DNA of 64,000 nt, taken from positions 105,087 through 169,086 of the forward strand of contig NW_017265153.1 in assembly GCF_001638985.1 (NCBI RefSeq). The letters run 5' to 3'. How positions within the stretch are numbered: the stretch's first letter is position 1; every line of letters starts with the position of its first letter. A program made the translations under genes and the position numbers. The notes under the pieces were generated by a model. That model was not told the DNA's origin. It did no database searches and was given only the letters and a program-made list of their open reading frames with translations. The DNA is from Phycomyces blakesleeanus NRRL 1555(-). Its lineage: Eukaryota > Mucoromycota > Mucoromycetes > Mucorales > Phycomycetaceae. This document shows, piece by piece, positions 44,144-64,000 of the stretch.

Positions 44144-47100
44144 TTCAAAATAAATTAAATTAAATTAAATTAAATGAAGAGAAAGACATATTGTGGTTAG
44201 GCCTGGGGACAAATGATCATACAAGCACAAATTTAACCAAGTGTACCCACGCATCTTCTTCTTCTTCTTTTCTGTATCTTTTGTTTGTTTTTTTTTATTT
44301 GTCTTGTTTATTGAGGAAAATATATGTCCTGTATTTTTCTTTTGGTACACAGGCTTTCACTCATAAACACATATGTATTTTACCTACCTTTCTATTAGTT
44401 TCTCACTGTAAATTTGCGGTTTTAATTTCTTTTTCTGCGTATTATTCCTGAATTAGAGAGCCCGTTATCGAGTGAAAATCTTAAATTTTTGTTCATTATT
44501 ATTGTAAGCGGCGAATCAATTTCCAATGAAAGATCTGTTAGGGATCGATTTACAAAGGATGTAGAGCTGATATGTGTCTCTGAATCTTCCAGTTAACCGC
44601 AGCTAACTCTTCTAAAATCTTAAAAATAATAAAGTGCGCTTTGTTATTGTAGAAAAAGACTCTTCTTTATTAATTTTGCAATTATATTTCATATTTTTAT
44701 ACAGTCTAGTTGGGTCACAGGATTTAAATGTTATGTGGTCTGGCTACACTTTATATTTGCTTCACTACAGACCCCAGAATTTTTACCGTGGAGGGCCATT
44801 TAGTGATGAATTGAAGTGAAAATTTAGAGAATTCCCTGATTTTTGACTTCAAATGCTCACTAAATTTCTAGTAAAGCTCAAGTTTATCCTCCCCATTCTA
44901 AAGCAAAATATATGATAGTAAGGAGTCTCTTCCTCACATTTCTTTAATAGAATAGGCCTCGGAAAGCTAAATTTATTAAGGTTTATTTCCTTTACATCTT
45001 TTAGTATTAATGTTTTCGACTTATAAAGCCTCACAGTTGTGTTTGAGTTTTTATTTATTTTTTTATTGAGTTTTACAAATAATATTTTTCTAGCCGTCTT
45101 GAGATTATCACAACTCAATACTCTCTCTAATATTTGAATAATTTTCAATCCAATAACCTGGAAAAGGTGGATCGCAATTTGTCTCACCAGGTTACTTAAA
45201 GCCAAAAGAAAATATTACTTATTTGATTCGATTTTTAATTTTCTATAATTGAAAAGCTATGATTACCATTGGTGTGCATTTGCATATGCTTGTAGAAATC
45301 TTAAAAAATATCATTTCCAGTGCACTCATATTTAATCGACCATAGAAAAGGTTCATTTATACAAAGGCTCCGTGCTTCAAACTAAAATAGTCTCAAGCGA
45401 ACCAAAGCTAGACTATGAGCCTCAAAGTAATAAGCGGAATCATACTATACAGTACTGTAGCGCATTATATTGTATTACAAAACAAAAGTTATAAATCAAA
45501 GCCTTTAATCCAACAGAGTATTATTTCTAGGTTATTCGTGCATCCAGTTGAGTTCGGTATACAAGCACAAAATATCAAAAGCACTAGATCCTATAAATCG
45601 ATAATTAGTAATCGATAGCGTCTTGCTCCCAAACAAACAAAACCTATACGTTCAGTAGCAGTAGATTGTCTCTTTGCTTTCATATTGTGCCGTCAGTCAG
45701 TCTGAGCAATAACAGAAAAAAATAGTAAATAAGCAGAGCCTTTAAAAGGTGATTTATATATATGTAATAGCCATTTTACTAGCTTGATCTATCTGTGACC
45801 AGGCTAGCACAATTGCAAGCACCACTACTTTTTCATGGTGTATAATGTAACTTATATAAATAATTATAATTATCGATAGAATGGTGTATATTTGAACACA
45901 TATAAATGTAAAGTGTTTCAGGCAGTTGGGTTATTCTGTATTAATTTCTCGGTTGGATTATGATTGGTTTATAAAGTAGTACAAACCAAGGTCGATTGAC
46001 AAACACTAGGCTAGACCCTGTTCTTCTTTTTACTTTTATTTTACTCTAAGAACGATGCTTTAACTTGAGGTACCAACGACTTTCAATAGTCAGACTGTCA
46101 ATCCCTTCATACTGAACCACTGAAAGTACTTTTATTTCAAGAAAGTATTCCTACACTTTGTGTTTATTAACTCAAGACACTGGTGAAAAAGCTAGAAGAA
46201 AAATGGAAGTCTTTCACACAAAAGAAAAGAAAAGATATAAGCAGCAATTTTTTTCGGGGGTGCTTCTTAAACTAATAAAGTCACAGCATGTGAAACAAAC
46301 AAACAAGAAAACAAACAAATAAATATACACAAGACTTTAATTAAAGCTTTATAATCAACACAACTTTACACTTCTTTATTGTAGTTAAACGTCTAGCCGA
46401 TTAATACTTTGTATATCAGTAGTACAGCTAAAATGAACACAGAGGCATATATAGTGTCTCGACAAGTGGCTGTTCAAAAGCATAAGCCTTGTTAACAGAA
46501 TCACAACAGAAAGTAGAATAAAAAAGGGGATGGGGGTCCATAGCAACTGAATAATTTGACATGCATATAGTCCACCAATCGGAAGACATCATTTAAATGT
46601 TTTCATGCTAAAGTAAAGTCTGGACCACTATTGCTACTATGCTCCTCTAAGCCCCATGACACATGTGATGCTGCACGGACAGCACGGACCTTATGTGACA
46701 TAAAAAGAACTAAAACAAAAAAACAAAAAGTAAAACAAGTGCCTGCACAGCACGTCCTTCAGAATGTAAGTGATACTTCTTTAAAACCCAAAACCCATAT
46801 TTTAAGCATAGATATTAAATAAAGAAGTAAAATAGTAATAATATATACATGTTGTCAAGGCTAAAAGATAAAAGAAAACCGAAAAAGGAATAAGAAAAAA
46901 ACCGAATTTTATAATATATTATCAAACTATCATAATAAAAATAATAAAAAAGAACAGCAACTCATGATTGAGACGTCATGAGTTTTATAAAAAAAAAACA
47001 CCTATCCAAACAGAACGCGTCAAAACAACTCTCTTCCACATACCATTAATACTTTATACACTTCTTTACTGCTCTCTCACAAACTGCTTTAATCAACATA

Positions 47101-47329
47101 CACGTTAAAGACGAATCATGACCAATACAAATCCATTTTGCTAGTCAAATCTCAGGCTTTTATCATATGTTAAGCAGTCAGTAGCAAGATATAAGACAAC
47201 ATGTCAAAATCAGTACACAGCAAAAATGAAATACTGAGGTCCAACACTGGTTTGATCATCAATCCATCCAAAGCCTATCCACGCTCAGAAACAAGAGATA
47301 AACTGACAGGACTTACTATATTTCAAGGA
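44144..47329. other. Long intergenic region before the tandem array
   Basis: AT-rich, with one dispersed-repeat copy (44586-44800). Frames such as 44849-45205, 45415-45618 and 46631-46822 show no domain and look like chance or decayed sequence. No gene is supported. Confidence 0.5.
44586..44800 (+). repeat. Diverged dispersed repeat, copy 2
   Basis: Partner of 25434-25650, with shared words in the same order: GTTAACCGCAGCTAACT, TTCTTTATTAA, TTTTTATACAGT, GTGGTCTGGCTACA and TTGCTTCACTACAGACC. An inverted TTGCGGTTTTA lies upstream near 44414. An old non-autonomous element is likely, but termini and target duplications were not found. Confidence 0.4.
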
Positions 47330-50300
47330 GTATATGATATTCATCAAAGACACACATTGTGAAGATTATATTTGTCTAGTCTTTTGACAAACAAGGTCAA
47401 CGATAAAAAATAAGATCTCCATCCAGGCCTACAGGTATATAAAGACTCGTTGATTAATCATTCGCTGCCTTTTATATTTCTGTAGGGACTTTTCAGGCAA
47501 AGTCAAGCAATCAAGAACAGGTTTCCATCCAGGGCCACAGGTACACCAAGACTCGAGGAGCATATGCTCATTGTATTTTGTATGCTTCTAGTGCCTTCCG
47601 TCCAGGTCAAGCATCAGGGATCCGATCAGAGTCCACGGTTATCAGGTATATCAAAACTCTATGAGCAGTTACTCACTTGTTTTTGTATATTTGTAATATC
47701 CATTCCATCCAGGTCAAGCTTCAAGGTTCAGGTCAAGGTCAACGGGTTCAGGTCGAGGTCCACGGTTTCAGGTATATCAAAACTCGATGAGCAGGTACTC
47801 ACTTGTTTTTGTATATTTGTAGTATCCATTCCATCCAGGTCAAGCTTCAAAGCCCACGTCAAAGTCCACGGTTTCAGGTATATCAAAACTCGATGAGCAG
47901 TTACTCACTTGTTTTTGTATATTTGTAGTATCAAATTCCATCCAGGTCAAGCATCAAGGATCCGATCAGAGTCCACGGTTTTCAGGTATATCAAACCTCG
48001 ATGAGCAGTTACTCATTTGTTTTTGTATATTTGTACTATCCATTCCATCCAAGTCAAGCTTCGAGGTTCAAGTCAAGGTCCACGGTTTCAGGTATATCAA
48101 AACTAAATGCGCAGTTACTCACTTGTTTTTCTATATTTGTAGTATCCATTCCGTCCAGGTCAAGCTTCAAGGTTCAGGCCAAGGTCCACGGTTTTCAGAT
48201 CAAGGTCCACGGTTTCAGGTATATCAAAACTCGATGAGCAGGTACTCACTTGTTTTTGTATATTTGTAGTATCCATTCCATCCAGGAAAAGCATCAATGT
48301 TCCGATCTCCCAGCTATGGTTATAGGTATAACAAAACTATATGCGCATTTACTCACTAGCTTTTATATATTACTAGTTTTCAGCCATCTAGGTCAAGTGT
48401 CAAGGTTCCGATTTCCCGGCAATGGGTATAGGTATAACAAATCGTTGTGGGAATATACTCACTAGTTATAATATATTTATAGTGTTCAGCCATCGATGTC
48501 AGGCGTCAAGGTTCCGATCGCCCGTCCATGGTTATAGGTATAAAAACATTATAGGCAAATACTTACTAGCTTTTATCTATTTCTAGTGTCCAGTCATCCA
48601 TGTGAAGCGGCAAGGACCCGATCGCCCGTCAATGGTTATAGGTAAAAAAAACCATTAGGGACATATACACACTAGCTTTTATCTATCTCTAATCTCCAGT
48701 TATCCAGGACAAGCATCATGGTTCCGATCTCCCAGCTATGGTTATAGGTATAACAATACATTATGCGCATTTACTCACTAGCTTTATTATAGTTCAAGTC
48801 TCCAGCCATCCAGGACAAGCATCAAGGTTCCGATCTCCCAGCTATGGCTATAGGTATAACAAAACGTTATGCGCATATACTCACTAGCTTTTATCTATTA
48901 CTAGTGTTCAGTCACCCAGGTCAAGCATCAAGGTTCCAATCTCCCAGCCACGGTTATAGGTATGACAAAACGTTATGCGTATATATTCACAAGGTTTAAT
49001 ATATCTCTAGAGGTCAGTCATCGAGGTCGAGTGTCAAGGTTCCGATCTCCCTGCCATGGTTATAGGTGTAAAAAACATTAGGGACATATACTCACTAGCG
49101 TTAATATATGTCTAGTGTTCAGTCATCCAGGTCAAGCATCTAGGTTCTGATCGCCAGTCCATGGTTATAAGTACAAAAAGCATTATGGGCATATACTCAT
49201 TTTTTTAATCTAGTTCTAGTATCCAGCCATCCAGGTCAAGCATCAAGATTCTGATCGCCCGTGCATGGTGATAGGTGTAACAAAATGTTATGGGCATATA
49301 TTCACTAGCTTTAATATATTTCTAGTGTTCAGCCATCCAGGTCAAGCATCAAGGTTTCGATCGCCAGCCGATGGTTATAAGTGAAAAAAAAAACGTTATC
49401 CCCATATACTCACTAGATTTAATATATTTCTAGTATTCAGCCATCCATGTCAAGCGTCAAGGTTCAGATCGCCCGTCCATGGTCATAAGTATAAAACAAC
49501 GTTATGCCCATATACTCACTAGCTGTAATATACTTCTTATGTTCAGTCGTCCAGGTCAAGCATCAAGGTTATGATCTCCCCGCCATGGTTATAGGTATAA
49601 AAAAACATTATGGGCATATACTCACTAGATTTAATATATCTCCAGTATCCAGCTATCCAGGTCAAGCATCAAGTTTCCGATCTCCCCGCCATGGTTATAG
49701 GTATAAAAAGCATTTTGGGCATATACTCATTATTTTAATCTAGTTCTAGTCTCCGGCCATCCAGGTCGAGCTTCAAGGTGCAGATCTCCCGTTATATGGT
49801 TATAGGTATAACAAAAATCGATGAGCAATCACACTCGGCTTTATTTATTTTTAGTGTTGAATCCATCAAGATCATGCTTCACGGATCCGGATTCAGTCCG
49901 TGGCTATAGGTATACAAAAACTCGATGAGGAATTACTCATTGGATTTTATATATTTCTAGTGTCTACTCATCCACGGCAATTATCAGGATCCGATTTTCA
50001 TGAATTGTTATAGCTAACCAAGTTTCCTTTTAGCCTTTACTTAAAACAAACTATACTCTTTATTTATACTTACTTTTGATGGCAAAGAACGATGATCAAA
50101 TATACATCCATTATGGAAGGTATACAAGTCGTTCTTGGCCATTACTAACCTAGAAGTATATATGACTATTGTTTTTACTCTCCAGGCCAAACAGCAAGAA
50201 TCAAAACTCAAATTTGGGCTACAGGTAAACAAGTCTTCTTGAGCTTTTACTTACTGTCATTTATATATTTCTAGTGTTTTTTTCCTTAAAGTTCAAATAT

Positions 50301-53300
50301 CAAGGATCTGATTTCAAATCAAGGTTACGGGTACACACTTTTCTCTCTGTCTTTACATGCTTTCTTTCGTATTGGCCTAGTGTGTTTACGATCCGGCTAC
50401 ACAATGAAAATTTTGTTTTCCTTCCAGTGCGACAGGTATATACATCTAGTTCGGCCTTTAGTTACTGTTGGCTTTATTTCTCTACTGGCTTCACAGTCCA
50501 AGCCAGCCACCATGGATCCTATATCCGTCCAGTGTTACAAGTATACACTTCTCTTTGGGATTTTACTTACTGTCGGTTTTAATTTTTTACTGTCCTTAAA
50601 GTCAAGGCCAACGACCAATCATCTGATATCCGCCTAGAATTACAGATTTAAAAATGTTATTGGGCCGTTACTTATAATTGTTTTTGTTTCTCTAGTGTCC
50701 TTGCAGTCAAGGGTAACGAGCAAGAACCCGGTCTCCATATTGGGATATAGTGTTACACATCTCTTTGATTTTTGACTTGCTGCAAGCTGTATTTTTTCTC
50801 GTGACTTTACAGTCAAATTCAACGCTCAAGGATCCAGTTTCCATCAAGTTTTACAGGTATACAAATCTGACAAGTGCTTTTATTTAATGTGTCTTTTTTT
50901 TGTCAAGTGCCTTTACTGTCTATGCCAATGATTCCGAATCCGAGCCCTATCCAGAGTGACAGGTATACAAATATGTTTGCGTCTTTACTAACTTTTAGTT
51001 TTATATGTCTAGTGCCTATACGGTTTAGGCCGAAGAACTAGGACTTGATATTCATCCAGACTTGCAGATATATATTTTTTGTTGGGCCGTTGATTATTGG
51101 CTTTTTTTATCCGTCTATTGTTTTTACTGTCAAGGGCAACCATCAAGGATCCGATCTCCATCCAGTATGACAGGTATACACTTTTCTTTGGGTTTCTACT
51201 TATCGCTTGTTTTTTTTTGTCTAGTGTTTTCACCGCCCAGGTCGAAGAACAAGGATTTCTTCTTCATCCACGGTTACAGGTATACAATTCTCTTTTAGCC
51301 TTTGCATAACGCTCGTTTGATTTTTCTAATTTCATTAATGTCTATGCTAAATAATAAGCATCTACTCTCCATCTAAGGCCATAGGTTTAAAAAATATTTT
51401 TAAGTATTATTTTACTATTTATTAATTAATTAATTATTATTTTTTAATTTTACACAGCCAAGGCCAATCGATCCAGGTTTACTGTCCTCTAGGGTAACAA
51501 GTATATGTACATACCTGATCGTTTACTTACTGCTTGTTGTTTCGAGTAATTTTTATTTAGTCAAACTGAATTACCAAAGTTTTACTATCTACCTAGTGCC
51601 CGAGGTATACAGGTCTCATTTAGTACTCACGTATCACTTATTATTCTGTCTAGCGTTTTTATAGTTTAAGCCAGCAATTGGATTTTTAATCTCCATTAAG
51701 GATTAAAGGTATACATGACTATGTGAACCTTTACTTACTAGCTATTATATCTTCTAGTCTTTTTACAGGAAAGGCCCACAATTAATATGAGTTGTCTATC
51801 CGGGGGGGACAGGTATACAAATCCGCCAAAAAATCTACTTACTATATATTTGCATAATGTTTTTACAGCCGAAGCCAACGATCAAAGCTTTGATATTCTT
51901 TTGGGCTCACAGGTATAAAAGTCTCTTTGACTTTTTAGGTACTATCAGTTGTTTTGTTCTAGCCCTTTCTTCTCTGTAGCAAGCGTTCAATGCTCAGCTC
52001 TACATCAAAGGTCGCAGGTATACAAGAATCTTTAAGCAATTTACTAAAAATTAGATTTTCCTAGCGTTTACATAGTCAAGGTGAAATGATCATGTTCTTT
52101 CTATCCGTTCAAGGTTCTAGGTACACACGCACATTTTAGCATTTATTCTTCACTGGTTGAATATTTTTAATCTTTGACAGCCCATGCCGAGAATCAAGGT
52201 TGCACTTCAAAAAATAGGGTTAAGGTATACATGCCTTTTTAAGCATCTACTTACTACTAGTTGCTTTATTCAGACTTTATACAGTCGAGACCAAAGATCA
52301 AGAGCCCGATTTCCGCATATATTTACAGGGATACAAATGGCTTTCTTTACCCATTAACATATTGCTAGCTGTTTGAAGCAGTCTTTTTACAGTTCAATTC
52401 AACAGTCAAGGTTCAAATCCCCGTCAAAAATCACTGATATACTGCCACTTTTTAGTATTTACTTACTGCCAATTGTGTTTCTTTAGTCTACTCGCAGAAA
52501 AGGCCAACAATCAAGATGCCACTCTCCTTCTTGGATGTTAGGTATACCAGTATCTTTGGGTATTTACCTATTACCAGCTTTAGTTCGGTAGTCTTTTCAC
52601 AATTGAGACCAACACCCAAGATTCCATAGTTCATTCAGGGTTACTGGTATATATACCTCTTTGAGCATTTGCTTGGTGTCTGCTATATTTGTCTAGTCTT
52701 TTCATAGTCAAGGCTACTAATTGAGATTCCGCTGCTCATCTGGGGTAAAAGGTATATATGCTTTTTTTTAAATAGTTAATCATTGCTTGTTGAAATTGTC
52801 TAATAATTTTACAGTCAATGCTGATGATCAAGTTTCTGTTATTCGTCGAGGTAACAGCCGTACACCCTCCTTTGAATATCTTTCTGTCATCCATCATATT
52901 TATCTAGACATACCATAGTCCACACCAAGGTTCAAGATTTTAGTCTCCACCCAGGTTCACAGATATTCAAGTATAATTGCCCTTTTAGGACTGCCGGTTG
53001 CTATTGCATATTGCTTTTAATATATAGGTCAAGGGATAAATTTCCTACTCTCAACCATGAGCTACAGGTATCGCCGTTTATTTTGAACATTTATTTATTA
53101 TCGATTATATTTGATTAGTATTTTAAATCCGAGTCCAACGATCAAGCTTCAGCTTTCCGGGAAGGGTTGAAGATATCCATGTATCTTTGATTTTTTTTAA
53201 TATCAACTGAATTTCTCTGGCGTTTGCACATTCAAGTCCATTGATCAAGTCTTTGGTCATTATCAAGTTTCCACTCAACATTATTAGGTAAAGGTATATA

Positions 53301-54053
53301 AGATTCTTAGATTACTTTTTTACAGCCAATGACATTTATCAAGCGTTTTTAGAGTCCTGGTCAACGATCAAGATCCTGCTATTAATTCAACGTCTTAGAT
53401 ATATAAGTGTATTTAAATATTACTTTACTACTGATTCTATCTATTTAATCTTTTTTTTCGTTTTCTTTTTTACATTCTATGCTAGCCCTCACGGCTCTAG
53501 TCTCCATCAAGGCTTATAGACATACAAGGTTTTTTTTTATTGGAATATGTTCTTACTATCAGTTTTAATTTTTCTAGTAATTTCACAGTTCATACCAACG
53601 ATTAGGCGTCCGATTTCCATCCAGGGCTACAGACATACATCTTTATTACACCATTTACTTACAGCCTGTTTTATATGTCCAGAATCTTCACAGCTCATGT
53701 CAACAGTCACGGTTTTGACCTACATCTCCAACCATAGGTATATATATATTTCCGAGAATTTACTTACTATTAGGTGTATTTTTCTAGTGTTTTCATAGTA
53801 AAGACCAACGATTAATATTCCGACATTTTCCTACAGTCATAGACATACAAGTCTCTTTGAGCCTTTAGTTACTTTAAGCTGTATATTCCCATACTTTTTA
53901 CGGCAAAGACCAGCGATCAAGGTTTCACTCTCCATAAAAATCCTCAGGTATACAAAGCTCTTTAAATATTTTCTTACTATCAATTAGATTATTCTAGTGT
54001 TTACACAGTCAAAGCCAAACTATAAAGCCTCTGTTGCCCGTCCAAGTTCTCCA

Positions 54054-54091
<38 letters not shown>

Positions 54092-55560
54092 AGCATCTAC
54101 TTACTGGTTGTTGTTTTTAGTTATCTTGACATAGTCAAAACCAACGATTAAGGTTTCACCATACATCCAGGGTATGAGATACACATGTCTCGTTTAGTAT
54201 TTAGCTATCAACTATTATTTTGTCTAACTTTTTTATATATATATTTTAAGCCAACGATCAAGTTTTGAGTATTTATTCATGATCACAGGTATATATTTCT
54301 TTTTGAACATATACTTATTGTTGGCTTTCTTTTTTTAGTCTATTTACCACCAGGGCGAACGATCAATATTCCGCTGCCCATTTTGGGCTATATGTATACA
54401 TGACTCTTTAAGCAGTTAATACCTGTCGCTTTTATTTGTCTAGTCTTTTAATCGCCAAGTCCAAAATTTATGGCTCTGCTCTACATCATGGGCCGTAGGT
54501 ATACAAGTCTCTTTGTGAATCTATTCACTGATGGTTATAAATACTTATAATTTCACAGTTGGTGTCAAAGATCATTGTTTAACTCTTATTCATATGTTAC
54601 AGGTATAGACTGTTTAGGTGCCCTTGTTTCTTTGAATGATGCTTGTATTTGCTTAATTTTTTTCTCTTCGTAGTTTAGGTCAATTATCATGGCTCTATTC
54701 TTTATTAAGGATTAAAGACATAGGAGGAGTTTTTAAAATTTTCTCACTGAAAATTGTATTAACTAATTTTTTACAGCCGATACCAGGTATCAGTATTCTA
54801 CTCCATTGTGGGCCACAGCTATATTCGTCTTTTTTAATTTTATTTTTTTACTATTTCGACAGCAAAATCCAACGCTAAAAAACTCAGTCTCTATCAAGGG
54901 TTACAGGTATACCAGTTTTCTTCGAATATATTACTACAAATTATTTTTGTATATTATTTTAAACAAACAAGCCCAACGATCAAGATTTCGGGCTCGAGTA
55001 TCATATGCCTGCATATGGATTCGTTTCAATAACTACTTTATGCTGTTTCTATAGGACCTTACAGGCATATTAAATGCTAAACATTGAAACTTTAGTTTTA
55101 GGTATGGATTCTAGGTATACGACAATTTTGGACCACTCAGTACTACTTGTTTTATATAAGAAGTATATGTGTAGTTGAAACCAAATAATTATCATTAAAA
55201 TAATTTGAGCTGGTTAAAGATATAAAAGGCTTTTGAGAAATTCACCGATACTTATATCTTTTTTATGTATTTGATATCAAGGATCAAGTAACAAATTTGT
55301 GCTCCCCGTCATTGTTTAAAGGTATACAAGTATTTTTTAAAAATTTTCTTTTATTAATGTTTTCATTTCAGTAGTGTATTTCCAATTGATTTAAAGGATC
55401 AAGTTTTTGCCTCCATTATAGACTAAACGTATACAGTGCTATTTGAAAATTTAAATAACATAATTTTCTTTCAGCTAGTACTCACTCAAGACAAGGATCA
55501 GAGTTCCACGTTTCCTCATAGGATAGAAGTGAACAAGACTCTCTGATCATTTAACTACTG
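47330..55560 (+). repeat. Giant tandem array, ~106-bp unit, about 75 copies
   Basis: The word (T/A)(C/T)AG-GTATA recurs at steps of 104-108 bp. Measured positions: 47435, 47541, 47646, 47878, 47986, 48092, 48326, 48432, 48538, 48748, 48854, 49066, 49595, 49701, 49806, 49910, 50225, 50331, 50857, 50963, 51173 and 51280. Two steps are about 20 bp longer because of an internal duplication (47646 to 47772 and 48092 to 48219). Three subfamilies succeed each other: 47.4-48.3 kb (ACTC(G)ATGAGCAGTTACTC), 48.3-49.8 kb (CGTTATGCGCATATACTC) and 49.9-55.5 kb (most diverged, TTTACTTACTG). Each unit carries, in order, GTATA(C/A), a (A)CTTACT/ACTCACT word, a pyrimidine tract with CTAG, an (A)CAG, a CAAGG(C)-AACGATCAAGG-like block, and TACAG/TATAG. 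No stable reading frame crosses units. Confidence 0.9.
54055..54090 (+). repeat. (TA)n microsatellite inside the array
   Basis: About 18 TA dinucleotides, apparently grown from the GTATA motif of one array unit. Confidence 0.85.
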
Positions 55561-56280
55561 CCTCTTTTAACTACAACTTGGCCTTACCGTACTCACATTT
55601 GCTACTTATCCTCTGGCTGCAAGGAATCACATAACACTAGCATAACGTTATTACTGCTCATCATCTATCCCAATTAACAACATTAGCAACTCGGCATACT
55701 TTAGCTTATTTGTTAGTTTCGGGTGTGTTTAATTCAGCGACTAGATTATCCACTGTATTGTATATCGCAGACCTTTGGATATATCCTCTCAGTATCCTCC
55801 TCATGCTAATATGAGCCATGAAACTGATCCCACTCAAGCTCTAATATTCAATCATTATAGCTATCACCATCACTTTTGAAGCTCTAGTATCTAAATCAAT
55901 AGCGTATTAATAGTTGAAGGTCAGCTATATATACGTATATGGCTACTAACGAGGCTATCTTCGTCGTCCTCGTGGCCACCCAGGGAATATTCCCCTGAAC
56001 TAGACACCTTATTCGTTATTTATTTAACCTAATAAATCATACATACGCTCAATCAGCGTAGCCAATGCCACACTGGATATCCATATCGAGCGGCCACTTC
56101 CAACTTATTCTTGATATTGAATTTGTTCTTAATCATATAGCAGTTCCATCTACATTAGACATTACAATATTCGAAGCTAAATCAGCTTTGGCTATTCTCT
56201 AGCCTTTTCGCCTTTCAATACATTACCTCCAATACATATTAAAAAAAAATATTATGAATGGTTTCATTCTCTGTGCAAAC
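55561..56280. other. Unassigned sequence after the array
   Basis: No array periodicity and no gene recognised. It is less repetitive than its surroundings, with a short GC-richer patch near 55945-56000. Confidence 0.45.
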
Positions 56281-56640
56281 TTTGATATCTTTGTGTTGGT
56301 GTTGGTATGCCCAAAAAAAGATTTGAATGTGGTAGTTGGCGGTGTCAATCTTGATAGCATTGTGATGTTGTTGGTACGTGTCAAAAAAAGAAAAAGAAAA
56401 TAAATATGTTAAGGTTTCTGGTGTCTGTTTTGGTAGCGTTGTGAAGTTGGTGTCGATTCCAGTAGATTTGTAGTCAATTTAGGCATGGGGGTTTGACTGA
56501 GGATTCCCGAAAGGGATGAGGTAGGTAAAAAAAAATTTCAATGCATCGTTAAAAAGAATTTTTTTTTTATTCTGTTGTGGCTCAGTGAAGGTGATTTTTG
56601 ATAGACAGTCCTCTCTAAAAAGTAAATATTTCATTATTAC
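56281..56640 (+). repeat. Old relative of the 74-bp-repeat element
   Basis: Three degenerate units share the pattern TTG(G/T)TA-GC(A/G)TTGTGA(A/T)GTTG followed by AAAAAAAG. The downstream block matches the end of the element at 61.5-61.7 kb: TTCAA-GCATCGTTAAAAAG, a T run, CAG-TGAAGG and ACAGTCCTCTCT. This marks an older, shorter insertion of the same family. Confidence 0.6.
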
Positions 56641-57300
56641 TTTTATTTCAATACGTTATACTATTCTACACTATAATATAATATATCACTCTATAGGTTT
56701 AAGTATAGGTTGAACAAAAACAAGGAAGAAATACTGACGGGATCGTTGTAGAAAAGGTGCCCTAATCAAAAGAGGTGATGTATCAAAAAAAGGGAAGAAC
56801 GGATATGGATACTGTGAACGTGTGTGTGGTTGTTGGTGGCCGCCTCTCCTCGGAGAATGAATTTGAAGAAGAAAGGAGAACGAAGTGTAGATGAGAGGAG
56901 CGAGAGGAAGAAGCAGAGGAGGCCATATATGAAGTTTAATGAAGATGAATGAAGTATCTCTTTTTACCACATTAAAAACACTTTTCCCATTTTATTATGC
57001 TGACAACTGATTCTCATCCCCATACGCCTAGTCAAATAAATATTATTTGACTCATCCTAACTATTGGAGTGCACATCTATTGTCTCGAGAACGTATCCTC
57101 TTGAAGTAGTTTACTGTCCATCGTTACCACACCTCCATTAAGAATATAAAACCTGTGCTAGATAGTAACCCGGGTGTAAAGACTTTCCAACTTGAATGGC
57201 CCTCCTCGCAGTAGTATTGTAATGAGTTACAATACCTCTTACAAGTACCCTATGTGTTAATACAAGACGCTAAAAGAGGGATTGTGATAAATCCCAAATG
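56641..57300. other. Intergenic sequence
   Basis: The minus-strand frame at 56686-56970 (94 codons) has no recognisable domain. No gene is supported. Confidence 0.4.
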
Positions 57301-59323: not shown

Positions 59324-59879
59324 GTGATCAAACATCTACCTCTAATTCCGAAAAAAAAATGTGACTACTTCCATATACAATAAAAAAAATAAGAGGTAAA
59401 AATGCTATTGTCTTTAATAAATGCTTATTACAAAAAATATAAAAGTGGAAATATTAAATGATTTTTTTTACTGTTAACTTGGTATTTAAACTATGAAGCA
59501 ATCAAATCTATTGCTTTTTTTAGTTTCTATCACTTGCTTTACCTTGATTAATATAAAAGTCAGATTTTGAAAATTTTTATCTTACTTTATTTTATTGAGA
59601 GTCGCGACTGAAAATAATATGCTTGAATAAAGCAACAACTATTATAGCTTCTTTATTTAATACATTAATCATTTTGTATGATTAGTATAAAAATAAAACA
59701 TTTGTCAGAACTATAAAGATAATACTAATCTATTAATTGTTCTCACATAATGCATGGAATAATTAATCATTCAAAGATATAATCTTACTAAAATATAAAT
59801 CTTTACCAATTTTTTTTTTAAAAAAAATTAAAAGATTCTATCATGATATATAAAACTAAAAAAAAACCCAAACATATAC

Positions 59880-59946
59880 TCTATTGAGAATTGAACGCCG
59901 GACCTTGCTTGAAGTAGTAACAGCGCTAACCACTTAACCTAAATAT
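59880..59946 (-). pseudogene. Degenerate tRNA-like sequence
   Basis: On the minus strand, GGTTAAGTGGTTAGCGC resembles a D arm/A box. GCAAGGTC-CGGCGTTCAATTCTC resembles the variable and T-arm/B box region. A proper acceptor stem and anticodon stem cannot be paired, so this is a tRNA relic or the head of a SINE, not a working tRNA. The identity of the parent tRNA is not clear. Confidence 0.35.
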
Positions 59947-60139
59947 AAGTAAGGTTAAACAAAAATAAAAATGTATATCTCCGACACAAATGTTGGTGCT
60001 TGCAAAATATGACATGGTTACTCTATTGCTCTGTCTAATGGTTTTCATGATATGTCTTTGATGTCACCGTACTTTTATAATATATATTATATTAGTAGCT
60101 AATTTAGTTGAAAAATTAAAATATTACAATAAGCCCAAT

Positions 60140-61690
60140 ATATGTTTCTTTTTTTTTTTTTAAAATATAGGTTTGAGGATTATGTTGTGCATCTATAAAG
60201 AGAGATTACTATGGCAGGACTTTGTGTTAGACAATGGCTGTTTGGTCTAGAACTGGATATTTAAAGATATACTAAAAGTAAGAATTTTTAAAAATTATGT
60301 GTGATAGGATGGGGTCATTTTCATTGAAGAAGGTGTTGAAGGTATAAGTATATAGATATCATGTGCATGCGAAAGTAAAAAGACAGTTCTGAGAATAGTA
60401 GTATATGTCACTTCAGATATAAAAGAATAGAGTATATGGGTTCCGAGTGCTGAAGTTTGATTATATGGTTATTATTTTTATTTTTATTTTTCAGTAGTGA
60501 TAAAATAAGAAAGATAGTATGATTGGTATTGTCGACTTTGAAAGTGGTGCGAAGTTGTTGTTGGTACAGGGTTGAAAAAAGAAAACAATAGAGTGGCGAT
60601 GACTGTCGCCTTTGAGAGCAGTGCGAAGTTGTTGTTAGTACAGGGTTGAAAAAAGAAAACAATAGAGTGGCGATGACTGTCGCCTTTGAACGCAGTGCGA
60701 AGTTGTTGTTAGTACAGGGTTGAAAAAAGAAAACAATAGAGTGGCGATGACTGTCGCCTTTGAGAGCAGTGCGAAGTTGTTGTTAGTACAGGGTTGAAAA
60801 AAGAAAACAATAGAGTGGCAATGACTGTCGCCTTTGAGAGCAGTGCGAAGTTGTTGTTAGTACAGGGTTGAAAAAAGAAAACAATAGAGTGGCGATGACT
60901 GTCGCCTTTGAGAGCAGTGCGAAGTTGTTGTTAGTACAGGGTTGAAAAAAGAAAACAATAGAGTGGCGATGACTGTCGCCTTTGAGAGCAGTGCGAAGTT
61001 GTTGTTAGTACAGGGTTGAAAAAAGAAAACAATAGAGTGGCAATGACTGTCGCCTTTGAGAGCAGTGCGAAGTTGTTGTTAGTACAGGGTTGAAAAAAGA
61101 AAACAATAGAGTGGCGATGACTGTCGCCTTTGAGAGCAGTGCGAAGTTGTTGTTAGTACAGGGTTGAAAAAAGAAAACAATAGAGTGGCGATGACTGTCG
61201 CCTTTGAGAGCAGTGCGAAGTTGTTGTTAGTACAGGGTTGAAAAAAGAAAACAATAGAGTGGCGATGACTGTCGCCTTTGAACGCAGTGCGAAGTTGTTG
61301 TTAGTACAGGGTTGAAAAAAAGAAAACAATAGAGTGGCGATGACTGCCGACTTTGAGAGCAGTGCGAAGTTTATAGGGACACGAAGGCTTGACCAAGGGC
61401 TTATTTTTTGTTAGAGTCGCATATACAGTGAACAGTCGTCAAAAATATAAAATAAAGAGTATTTCATTTTTTATTTTATTTTTCAAAAGAGTGCGCTTCC
61501 TTTTCGTATTGCGTCGCTTTCGGTCCACTTTGAGTTGCAATACAATATGAATGACGATCCCCAACAGGAATGAAGATCCTCGACTGGGATGGCGGAATGT
61601 CGAAAGAAGATTCAAGCCATCGTTAAAAAGATTTTTTTTTGTTTTGGTTACAGCACAGTGAAGGGTTTTGAATACACAGTCCTCTCTCAA
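60140..61690 (+). mobile_element. Dispersed element with internal 74-bp tandem repeats, copy 1
   Basis: A unique 5' part (60140-60515) leads into about 11-12 copies of a 74-bp unit. Each unit starts GAGTGGCGATGACTGTCGCC and continues with GCAGTGCGAAGTTG, TTGTTAGTACAGGG and an A-rich end. Unit starts: 60591, 60665, 60739, 60813, 60887, 60961, 61035, 61109, 61183, 61257 and 61332. A 3' part (to about 61690) ends with CATCGTTAAAAAG, a T run and ACAGTCCTCTCT. No protein is encoded. The unit copies are nearly identical, so the array is young. Confidence 0.85.
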
Positions 61691-62834
61691 CGATTGTAAG
61701 TGAGTACCATACGGTCTTTAAACCTTCGTATGGGTAACAGTATCCCTGTCAATGGACCCTGCTATGATTCTTTCACTTGTGGGTACACAAAGGGTGTCTG
61801 CACCACCGATCAGTAATACCAGTTTACAAAAAAGTGCGTGCTGTCCGAATTGTCGATTAGAACCCTTAGTTTGTAAAAAGATATAAAAAGAAATAGACAA
61901 TATCGTATATATTGTACCAGTGCAGCCAATTGACTGGTAGACAGATCCCCAAGTGTGTGCGTGTGTATTAAAGAGGGAAAAAAGGTAGGTGTAAGAGCTC
62001 ATCTGAAATATACTAACAGATTATATATATATAGTCCTAGAGTAACTTTTAGTATATGAACACAATTCATTTTAAAATAACTTGATAATATATAGATATA
62101 TATCAACTTGGATTAGACTTATAAATAAAAAGAAAATAAGAGATAAAGCGAATTAAAGGAAGTAGAGTGTTAATTGATCCATAAATATCCAGTGGATCAA
62201 ACTGTTATAAAGATGTATTAAACCCCATATTGTTGCTTATAGCTCGGATCGGATTTAATTTTAATCAAAATCTTTTGCAGCCGAAATATATATATTCTTG
62301 CACAGAACTATTTAATAAACTGCTTGAGAAGTATATGGTACAAGCCAAAGATATCTATTTGTTTAAGTTGCTGTTTAAATAGTTTTAAATAAGAGTATAT
62401 TTGAAAAATTGAATAGGAAATAAATGATACAAGCTATAGACATATTTCAGTCGAGTTACTATTTAAAAAATCGCAAAGAAATATATAATTATTGAATATA
62501 ATAGTACCAGCCTTTTTCATTATTAAAATAAAGCCTTTTGGAATTAGATAAAAATAAGATATTGGAATTCATTATATATACTAATATATTAATATGAAAT
62601 ATCAAAAGGCTTGATTATTTGCACGAACAAAGATATAAACCAAAAAACACAAGCTATTAGTTAACTGTAGAGTATCGTGTATAAAGTATCAAAGTGCTTT
62701 GCTTTCTATTTTTGGTTGGTTTATTTTGATTTTCATATGATTCTATACTTTTTTTAGACAAAACAAACAAACTTACTTGGGCGGTTACCCAGGCTTTTTT
62801 TTTACGATAAACCTGTTATTTCATGCATGACCAT
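61691..62834. other. AT-rich spacer between element copies
   Basis: Very AT-rich, no gene recognised. The minus-strand frame at 61718-62002 has no recognisable domain. Confidence 0.5.
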
Positions 62835-63445: not shown

Positions 63446-64000
63446 ATATATGTTTCTTTTTTTTAAAAATATAGGTTTGAGGATTATGTTGTGCATCTAT
63501 AAAGAGAGATTACTATGGCAGGACTTTGTGTTAGACAATGACTGTTTGGTCTAGAACTGGATATTTAAAGATATACTAAAAGTAAGAATTTTTAAAAATT
63601 ATGTGTGATAGGATGGGGTCATTTTCATTGAAGAAGGTGTTGAAGGTATAAGTATATAGATATCATGTGCATGCGAAAGTAAAAAGACAGTTCTGAGAAT
63701 AGTAGTATATGTCACTTCAGATATAAAAGAACAGAGTATATGGGTTCCGAGTGCTGAAGTTTGATTATATGGTTATTATTTTTATTTTTATTTTTCAGTA
63801 GTGATAAAATAAGAAAGATAGTATGATTGGTATTGTCGACTTTGAACGCAGTGCGAAGTTGTTGTTGGTACAGGGTTGAAAAAAGAAAAGAATAGAGTGG
63901 CGATGACTGTCGCCTTTGAACGCAGTGCGAAGTTGTTGTTAGTACATGGTTGAAAAAAGAAAAGAATAGAGTGGCGATGACTGTCGCCTTTGAACGCAGT
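63446..64000 (+). mobile_element. Dispersed element with 74-bp repeats, copy 2, cut by window end
   Basis: A direct, nearly identical duplicate of 60140-60700. The unique 5' part matches with only scattered substitutions (for example AATGGCTG versus AATGACTG, AATAGAGT versus AACAGAGT), then the 74-bp units begin and run off the window. Its units share AAAAGAATA where copy 1 has AAAACAATA. Confidence 0.9.

What the first reader, a model, noticed from the sequence alone, without database searches (positions are those of the whole stretch)
47330..55560. An 8.2-kb tandem array with a constant ~106-bp period across strongly diverged units
Seen: about 75 units with steps of 104-108 bp, although units at the right end share only scattered words with those at the left. 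Indels are rare compared with substitutions. A step near 105 bp equals ten DNA turns, and three subfamilies follow one another along the array. Strict spacing in diverged copies suggests length constraint, for example chromatin phasing, a centromere-like or structural role, or an RNA made from repeated modules. I know of no described family to match it, but I cannot search.
Basis: partly seen in the sequence, partly recalled or inferred. Interest (0 to 1): 0.85.

Follow-up and report, generated by a model that had tools for sequence, protein, structure and literature searches.

The report
Layered 106-bp satellite inside dispersed repeat
The array is real, but it is one of about thirty copies of a spread-out non-coding repeat in an unnamed, probably fungal, genome; it is built in age layers, with one end still being remade and the other an old frozen zone, and no special function has been shown.

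Summary
In detail: 77 + strand units fill window 47356-55569, step 105-106 bp, in three successive zones. The array is not unique. A right-zone query matches over its full length at 97-100% in 28 places of this 53.5-Mb genome, window included; diverged copies lie on contig C4. It is the core of a dispersed repeat block enriched near contig ends: 16 of 26 lie within 50 kb of one, though assemblies also break at repeats.
Left plus middle units number 12 to 65 in 18 other copies, with 127/234/338-bp periods in the two copies scanned: this end still turns over. Right-zone units are about 55% alike whatever their distance: one burst, then separate divergence. The block was copied later.
I found no RNA fold, no splice-site protection, no open spliced frame. 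A ~10.5-bp AA/TT signal is marginal. Slower change at conserved columns weakens once clustered, conversion-like changes are removed (z -1.9, -1.8). Indel depletion is only suggestive (p=0.08).
Best reading: an age-layered satellite, renewed at one end, frozen at the other, spread with its flanks by duplication. Protein-binding or length constraint is possible, not shown.

The parts
45129..47355 (+). Left flank of the repeat block, shared by about 30 places; the window copy starts abruptly at 45129
   Evidence: All 12 other copies read across this point continue leftwards; seven further copies start later than 45129. Median divergence between near copies 0.4-2.4% from 46.25 kb on
47356..48217 (+). 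Left (young) zone: ~106-bp and ~127-bp units, 126/214/233-bp higher-order periods
   Evidence: left plus middle units number 12-65 in 18 other copies; 127/234/338-bp periods in L016 and L017
48218..50012 (+). Middle zone: 17 units of 104-108 bp, about 14% from their consensus
50013..55570 (+). Right (old, frozen) zone: about 52 units of ~105 bp, mean pairwise identity 0.546, nearly flat with distance; collinear in the copies read apart from some gaps and truncations
55571..56624 (+). Right flank ending in degenerate 74-bp-type repeats; the window copy breaks at ~56620, L025 and C20:196k continue ~200 bp
59724..61833 (+). Second repeat with a 74-bp satellite (60530-61371); its end module is related to the right end of the array block

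Best explanation
It is an age-layered satellite array that forms the core of a dispersed, non-coding repeat block. Steps inferred from the data: (1) a ~105-bp unit was amplified once into a long head-to-tail array; (2) in what is now the right zone exchange between units became rarer, units diverged to ~55% identity and the register froze; (3) at the left end, next to the conserved flank, unequal exchange and conversion kept making and homogenising units, with 127-bp variants and higher-order repeats; (4) the whole block with its flanks was copied to about 30 places by segmental duplication or ectopic exchange, many near contig ends. The constant step is inherited from step 1 and kept because indels are rarer than substitutions. 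Layers, copy number and collinearity are shown; the order of events and the exchange mechanism are inferred.
For: 77 units. A right-zone query of 849 bases matches full length at 97-100% in 28 places, window included, besides partial and diverged ones. Right-unit identity nearly flat with distance, 0.567 at lag 1 and 0.544 at lag 20; left/middle units decay from 0.803 at lag 1 to 0.750 at lag 8. Left plus middle unit number 12-65 in 18 copies. Higher-order periods. Private substitutions between near copies are clustered (104 gaps of <=5 bp against 32.3 +- 5.2 expected) and lean towards bases common in other units (113 of 495 towards consensus against 68.9 +- 7.7), as exchange between units predicts (one copy, L025, gives 142 of the 495). 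Whole-unit shifts between the window and L071. No fold and no conserved splice sites; no Rfam family at its gathering score.
Against: Column conservation in the right zone varies far more than binomial within one base class (A columns 0.33-0.94, chi2/df 9.1; T columns 4.2), which a purely neutral burst does not predict unless founders differed. Conserved columns change more slowly between near copies and diverged paralogs after trinucleotide control (z -3.6, 0 of 2000; z -2.6, 9 of 2000); this falls to z -1.9 and -1.8 when only isolated changes are counted, still in the same direction. Exchange evidently also touches the right zone, so 'frozen' is relative. Left-flank conservation above that of most of the array is not explained. 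Contig-end enrichment may be an assembly effect.
Confidence: 0.75

Rival explanations
1. The units are binding sites of a sequence-specific DNA-binding protein that tolerates divergence outside a core (about G-R-T-A-T-A-n-A plus single positions such as T39, A50, A66) and needs them at about 105-bp pitch, for example in heterochromatin or end-protection chromatin.
For: Positions of this core are among the best kept in two zones that parted long ago: G1 A4 T5 A6 A8 T39 A50 A66 at 90% or more in alignment A1 of 44 units; A8, A105, A6, T3, T43, T41 on top in 429 distinct left/middle units, though G1 and T5 are only 0.91 and 0.93 there. Between near copies AT at columns 4-5 is polymorphic in 2 of 39 units and TA at 5-6 in 1 of 38, against 76 of 483 and 70 of 521 array-wide. 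Base-class overdispersion. Marginal 10.5-bp AA/TT signal.
Against: The constraint signal is marginal once clustered, conversion-like changes are removed (58 of 2000 and 78 of 2000 permutations). ATA at columns 4-6 changed in 5 of 84 bases between diverged paralogs against 26 of 267 for ATA elsewhere, p=0.38. No helical preference in outlying unit lengths.
Confidence: 0.2
2. Each unit is an intron-plus-miniexon module (AG|GTATA...CTNAC...TAG, 50-51 nt, then ~55 nt) of a many-exon gene.
For: GT at columns 2-3 in 8 of 8 left and 17 of 17 middle units; intron-like layout with T-rich tract; an intron inferred in the window's tricalbin-like gene carries TTACTTAT near its 3' end; the exon-like part is poor in + strand stops: left 0 against 4.2, middle 9 against 27.8 +- 4.0, right 107 against 125.1 +- 7.3 in shuffles.
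Against: GT in only 35 of 52 right units. GT and AG are not the best kept columns in 429 left/middle units (G2 0.95, A50 0.93, G51 0.95) and not clearly protected between copies (GT 6 of 32, AG 5 of 24 and 9 of 29 polymorphic; array-wide GT 84 of 282, AG 63 of 279). Splicing the left and middle zones by the rule (24 introns, 1511 bases) leaves 11, 14 and 11 stops in the three frames, longest open run 229 codons (itself began one base after the A of the ATG). The intron-like part is also poor in stops, and units are near-copies, so stop counts are not independent.
Confidence: 0.05
3. A long RNA made of repeated structured modules.
For: Strand asymmetry: T- and C-rich + strand over 50-55 kb; flank conserved upstream of the array.
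Against: RNAalifold finds no structure on either strand for 52 units; mean single-unit energy -13.5 (+) and -14.0 (-) against -14.2 for shuffles; one column pair exceeds the null maximum slightly (0.327 against 0.305 in 10 shuffles), with 28 of 52 units A-T or T-A there. No Rfam family reaches its gathering score in 45-57 kb.
Confidence: 0.07
4. A large transposable element with an internal satellite, as in some Helitrons and long-TIR elements, moved by transposition rather than duplication.
For: About 30 near-identical dispersed copies; recurrent flanks on both sides.
Against: No common left end: limits differ between copies and in C51 the block runs on into another repeat's end module. No ORF of 150 aa or more in 38.7-62.8 kb. 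Terminal inverted repeats and target duplications were not searched for systematically; none stood out at the junctions read.
Confidence: 0.15

Closest known systems
Alpha-satellite-type layered arrays (higher-order core, single-unit flanks)
   Same: Young homogeneous zone with higher-order periods beside an older zone of diverged single units; an age gradient is described for alpha satellite (PMC7767330, passages read)
   Different: Unit ~105 bp not 171; one-sided layering; about 30 short arrays with several per contig, not one megabase array per chromosome; no CENP-A evidence
Subtelomeric satellite and repeat blocks (e.g. potato and khipu satellites; yeast Y' elements)
   Same: Multicopy blocks near contig ends, spread with flanks; subtelomeric satellites are described in several species (titles and abstract starts listed; Y' recalled)
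   Different: Telomere proximity not shown here: one TTAGGG4 match in the genome, inside contig C28
Satellites with a conserved protein-binding box (CENP-B box)
   Same: Short well-kept core in otherwise diverged units
   Different: The CENP-B box is a 17-bp motif with a known protein (PMC8122249, passages read); resemblance to it was not tested here and no protein is known for this core
Helitron-like elements with internal satellites
   Same: Satellite inside a dispersed element
   Different: No common ends found; comparison recalled from general knowledge, no call

Membership tests
Satellite DNA (complex tandem repeat) | Long head-to-tail arrays of one unit, multicopy | tested here: met
   77 units in the window; 1370 unit matches at E<=0.01 in 22 held loci
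Satellite DNA (complex tandem repeat) | Turnover and homogenisation by exchange | tested here: met
   Left plus middle copy number 12-65 in 18 copies, identity decays with lag; clustered consensus-directed changes
Subtelomeric repeat | Location next to telomeres | tested here: inconclusive
   16 of 26 copies with known contig length within 50 kb of a contig end, expected fraction 0.115 (of 28 full-length places C13 and C5 were dropped, lengths unknown); only one telomere-like match, interior
Centromeric satellite | One array region per chromosome, CENP-A | tested here: inconclusive
   Several copies per contig speak against; chromatin not testable with these tools
Spliced many-exon gene | Conserved GT-AG and an open spliced frame | tested here: not met
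Structured RNA module | Covarying base pairs | tested here: not met
   (52 right-zone units)
DNA transposon or Helitron with internal satellite | Fixed ends, target duplication or AT insertion | tested here: inconclusive
   Left limits differ between copies; right end read in few copies; no systematic search for target duplications

The most novel reading that the evidence does not exclude
The frozen right zone is kept in register by an unknown sequence-specific chromatin protein that binds a GRTATAnA-type core once per ~105 bp; the block would be a mobile, age-layered docking platform, working like a CENP-B-box satellite but near chromosome ends of a fungus.
Probability: 0.15. Interest if true: 0.7.

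Novelty: new member of a known kind. Interest (0 to 1): 0.38.

Why it matters
About 30 nearly identical copies of one array that carries both a live end and a fossil end let satellite turnover be read directly: the old zone marks ancestral register, the left zone shows gains and losses since the copies parted. It is also a warning that a constant step in diverged units can come from ancestry and a low indel rate alone, and that slow-changing columns in satellites can be mimicked by conversion between units.

Tried and rejected
Rejected or weakened: (a) intron-exon units, attractive at first, rejected because splice dinucleotides are no more protected than other columns and the spliced left/middle zones have stops in all three frames; (b) RNA fold; (c) ten-helical-turn phasing: the 17 outlying unit lengths lie at all distances from multiples of 10.5; the AA/TT signal is marginal; the shuffle test used too coarse a grid (it missed the peak) and is replaced; (d) strong purifying selection on columns: seen (in one search weaker for consensus-matching sites alone, rho -0.43 against -0.25 +- 0.08) but much reduced when only isolated changes are counted; (e) strong length constraint: the comparisons looked strong (p=0.004), but one search showed that they mixed in non-orthologous units shifted by whole units; with orthologous units only (units under 82% identity or 85 aligned bases dropped) p=0.08, so the array figures of 74 and 75 are not used; the permutation (36 of 51 units with net length change of 1 or less against 25.9 expected) is not used either, since the aligner can invent compensating gaps and indels cluster in a few units; the between-copy indel ratio (89 events to 648 substitution types) is inflated by homopolymers (41 of 89); (f) a common transposon end. 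The zero rates at columns 1, 2, 104 and 105 are an artefact of local alignment ends; one search leaves the edges out. Five paper searches listed nothing that describes such a repeat; only their capped listings and the passages were seen.

Full report
CHECK. A sequence-only profile built from 44 units finds 77 + strand units at 47356-55569. Right-zone lengths are 104-106 bp in 35 of 52 units. Tandem Repeats Finder reports the unit only in the left and middle parts. Right-zone units differ from their consensus at 31.5% of sites and from each other by 45% on average; there are 83 indel events to 1698 substitutions.

WHERE IT LIES. The window is C20:105087-169086 of an unnamed 53.5-Mb, 60-contig genome. 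Neighbouring genes (AlaX-like, tricalbin-like C2, BTB, cullin) include one with inferred introns; I infer a fungus, and no tool named it. A left-zone query gives 277 matches over many contigs, a lower bound. A right-zone query of 849 bases matches over its full length at 97-100% in 28 places including the window, and more weakly in partial or diverged copies, chiefly on C4. Analyses between near copies use these, or the subset that covers the region.

THE BLOCK. Copies share flanks. To the left the window copy breaks at 45129, where a ~345-bp repeat lies. All 12 other copies read across that point go on; of 18 copies printed further left, 13 share the next stretch, and 11 places match all 621 bases of it. 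Seven other copies begin later than 45129. In C51 the shared stretch runs back into the end module of the 74-bp satellite element. To the right the window copy breaks at ~56620, while L025 and C20:196k continue into sequence related to the end of the second element in the window, 59724-61833. Blocks of this kind therefore adjoin and share modules. Median divergence of near copies from the window: 0.4-2.4% in 46.25-47.25 kb, 0.4-4.0% in 50-54.5 kb, 3.6-10% in 54.5-56.5 kb, the last from 1 to 9 copies. No ORF of 150 aa lies in 38.7-62.8 kb.

LAYERS. In 18 copies the left and middle zones together hold 12 to 65 units (577 units, 429 distinct), with 127-, 234- and 338-bp periods in the two copies scanned, L016 and L017; identity falls with distance from 0.803 to 0.750. 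In the right zone identity is nearly flat with distance, 0.567 to 0.544, yet that zone is collinear between near copies, mostly at 96-98% (L025, L013 and L028 are lower in parts or carry gaps). Three C4 copies (L071-L073) are older: orthologous units differ by 8-11%, and in L071 the register is shifted by whole units over part of the array. So the right zone arose as one burst, largely froze, and was copied as a block.

IS ANYTHING CONSTRAINED? Column conservation among units correlates with slower change between near copies (rho -0.53 against a base-stratified null of -0.19 +- 0.09, 0 of 500), also with trinucleotide control (z -3.6, 0 of 2000). But private changes are clustered and run towards bases common in other units, the mark of exchange between units, which by itself makes uniform columns look slow. 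With isolated changes only: near copies z -1.9, 58 of 2000 (268 changes); C4 paralogs z -1.8, 78 of 2000 (176 changes). Overdispersion of conservation within A and T columns stays unexplained, and positions around GRTATAnA are among the best kept of both old and young units. I regard weak constraint as possible. Indels: 26 to 688 mismatches in orthologous array units against 27 to 426 in eight comparisons of flanks and other repeats, p=0.08.

WHAT IT IS NOT. No RNA structure, no Rfam family at its gathering score. Splice signals are not kept as signals, and a spliced left/middle zone has 11-14 stops in every frame. Outlying unit lengths do not fall on multiples of 10.5 bp; an AA/TT signal near 10.5 bp is marginal in the right zone (8 of 200 shuffles reach it) and a little stronger in the middle (2 of 200), absent in a control (183 of 200). 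A 105-bp repeat has its tenth harmonic there, so this alone does not show helical phasing.

LOCATION. Of 26 near-identical places with known contig length, 16 lie within 50 kb of a contig end (expected 11.5%). Contigs end inside these very repeats (L016, L011), so this may be partly an assembly effect; the only TTAGGG4 match is inside C28.

JUDGEMENT. A new satellite family with unusually clear one-sided age layering, a known kind. The specific claim of enforced spacing is not supported beyond suggestion.

Noticed in passing
L070 (G000:C30:541200-546480): A 4471-bp tandem macro-repeat with GC-rich ~340-bp internal repeats; it shares its end and start modules with the array block. No Rfam match at E<=1.
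   Followed up: partly
G000 contig C4, e.g. 281.9k(-)/287.4k(+), 459k(-)/464k(+), 2320k(-)/2329k(+), 2473k(-)/2478k(+): Relatives of the GC-rich ~340-bp repeat occur on C4 in inverted pairs about 4-9 kb apart, like long terminal inverted repeats made of tandem units.
   Followed up: no
window 60530-61371 and 63834-64000: A 74-bp satellite at 96-97% matches, twice in the window; degenerate relatives form the right end of the array block.
   Followed up: partly
window ~44788-45141: A ~345-bp repeat with partly self-inverse ends (MITE-like) lies where the window copy of the block is cut.
   Followed up: no
window ~56820-57258: A ~440-bp dispersed repeat with about 30 further matches at 71-87% identity.
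   Followed up: no
window 50000-55560 against other copies: CpG sites differ between copies about twice as often as other C and G sites (0.027-0.032 against 0.013-0.015), which would fit cytosine methylation.
   Followed up: no
window 46250-47360: The ~1.1-kb flank left of the array is more alike between near copies than most of the array, and also in the diverged C4 copies (mismatches about 2.6-5.5% against 8-11% in array units); recent exchange or constraint was not resolved.
   Followed up: partly
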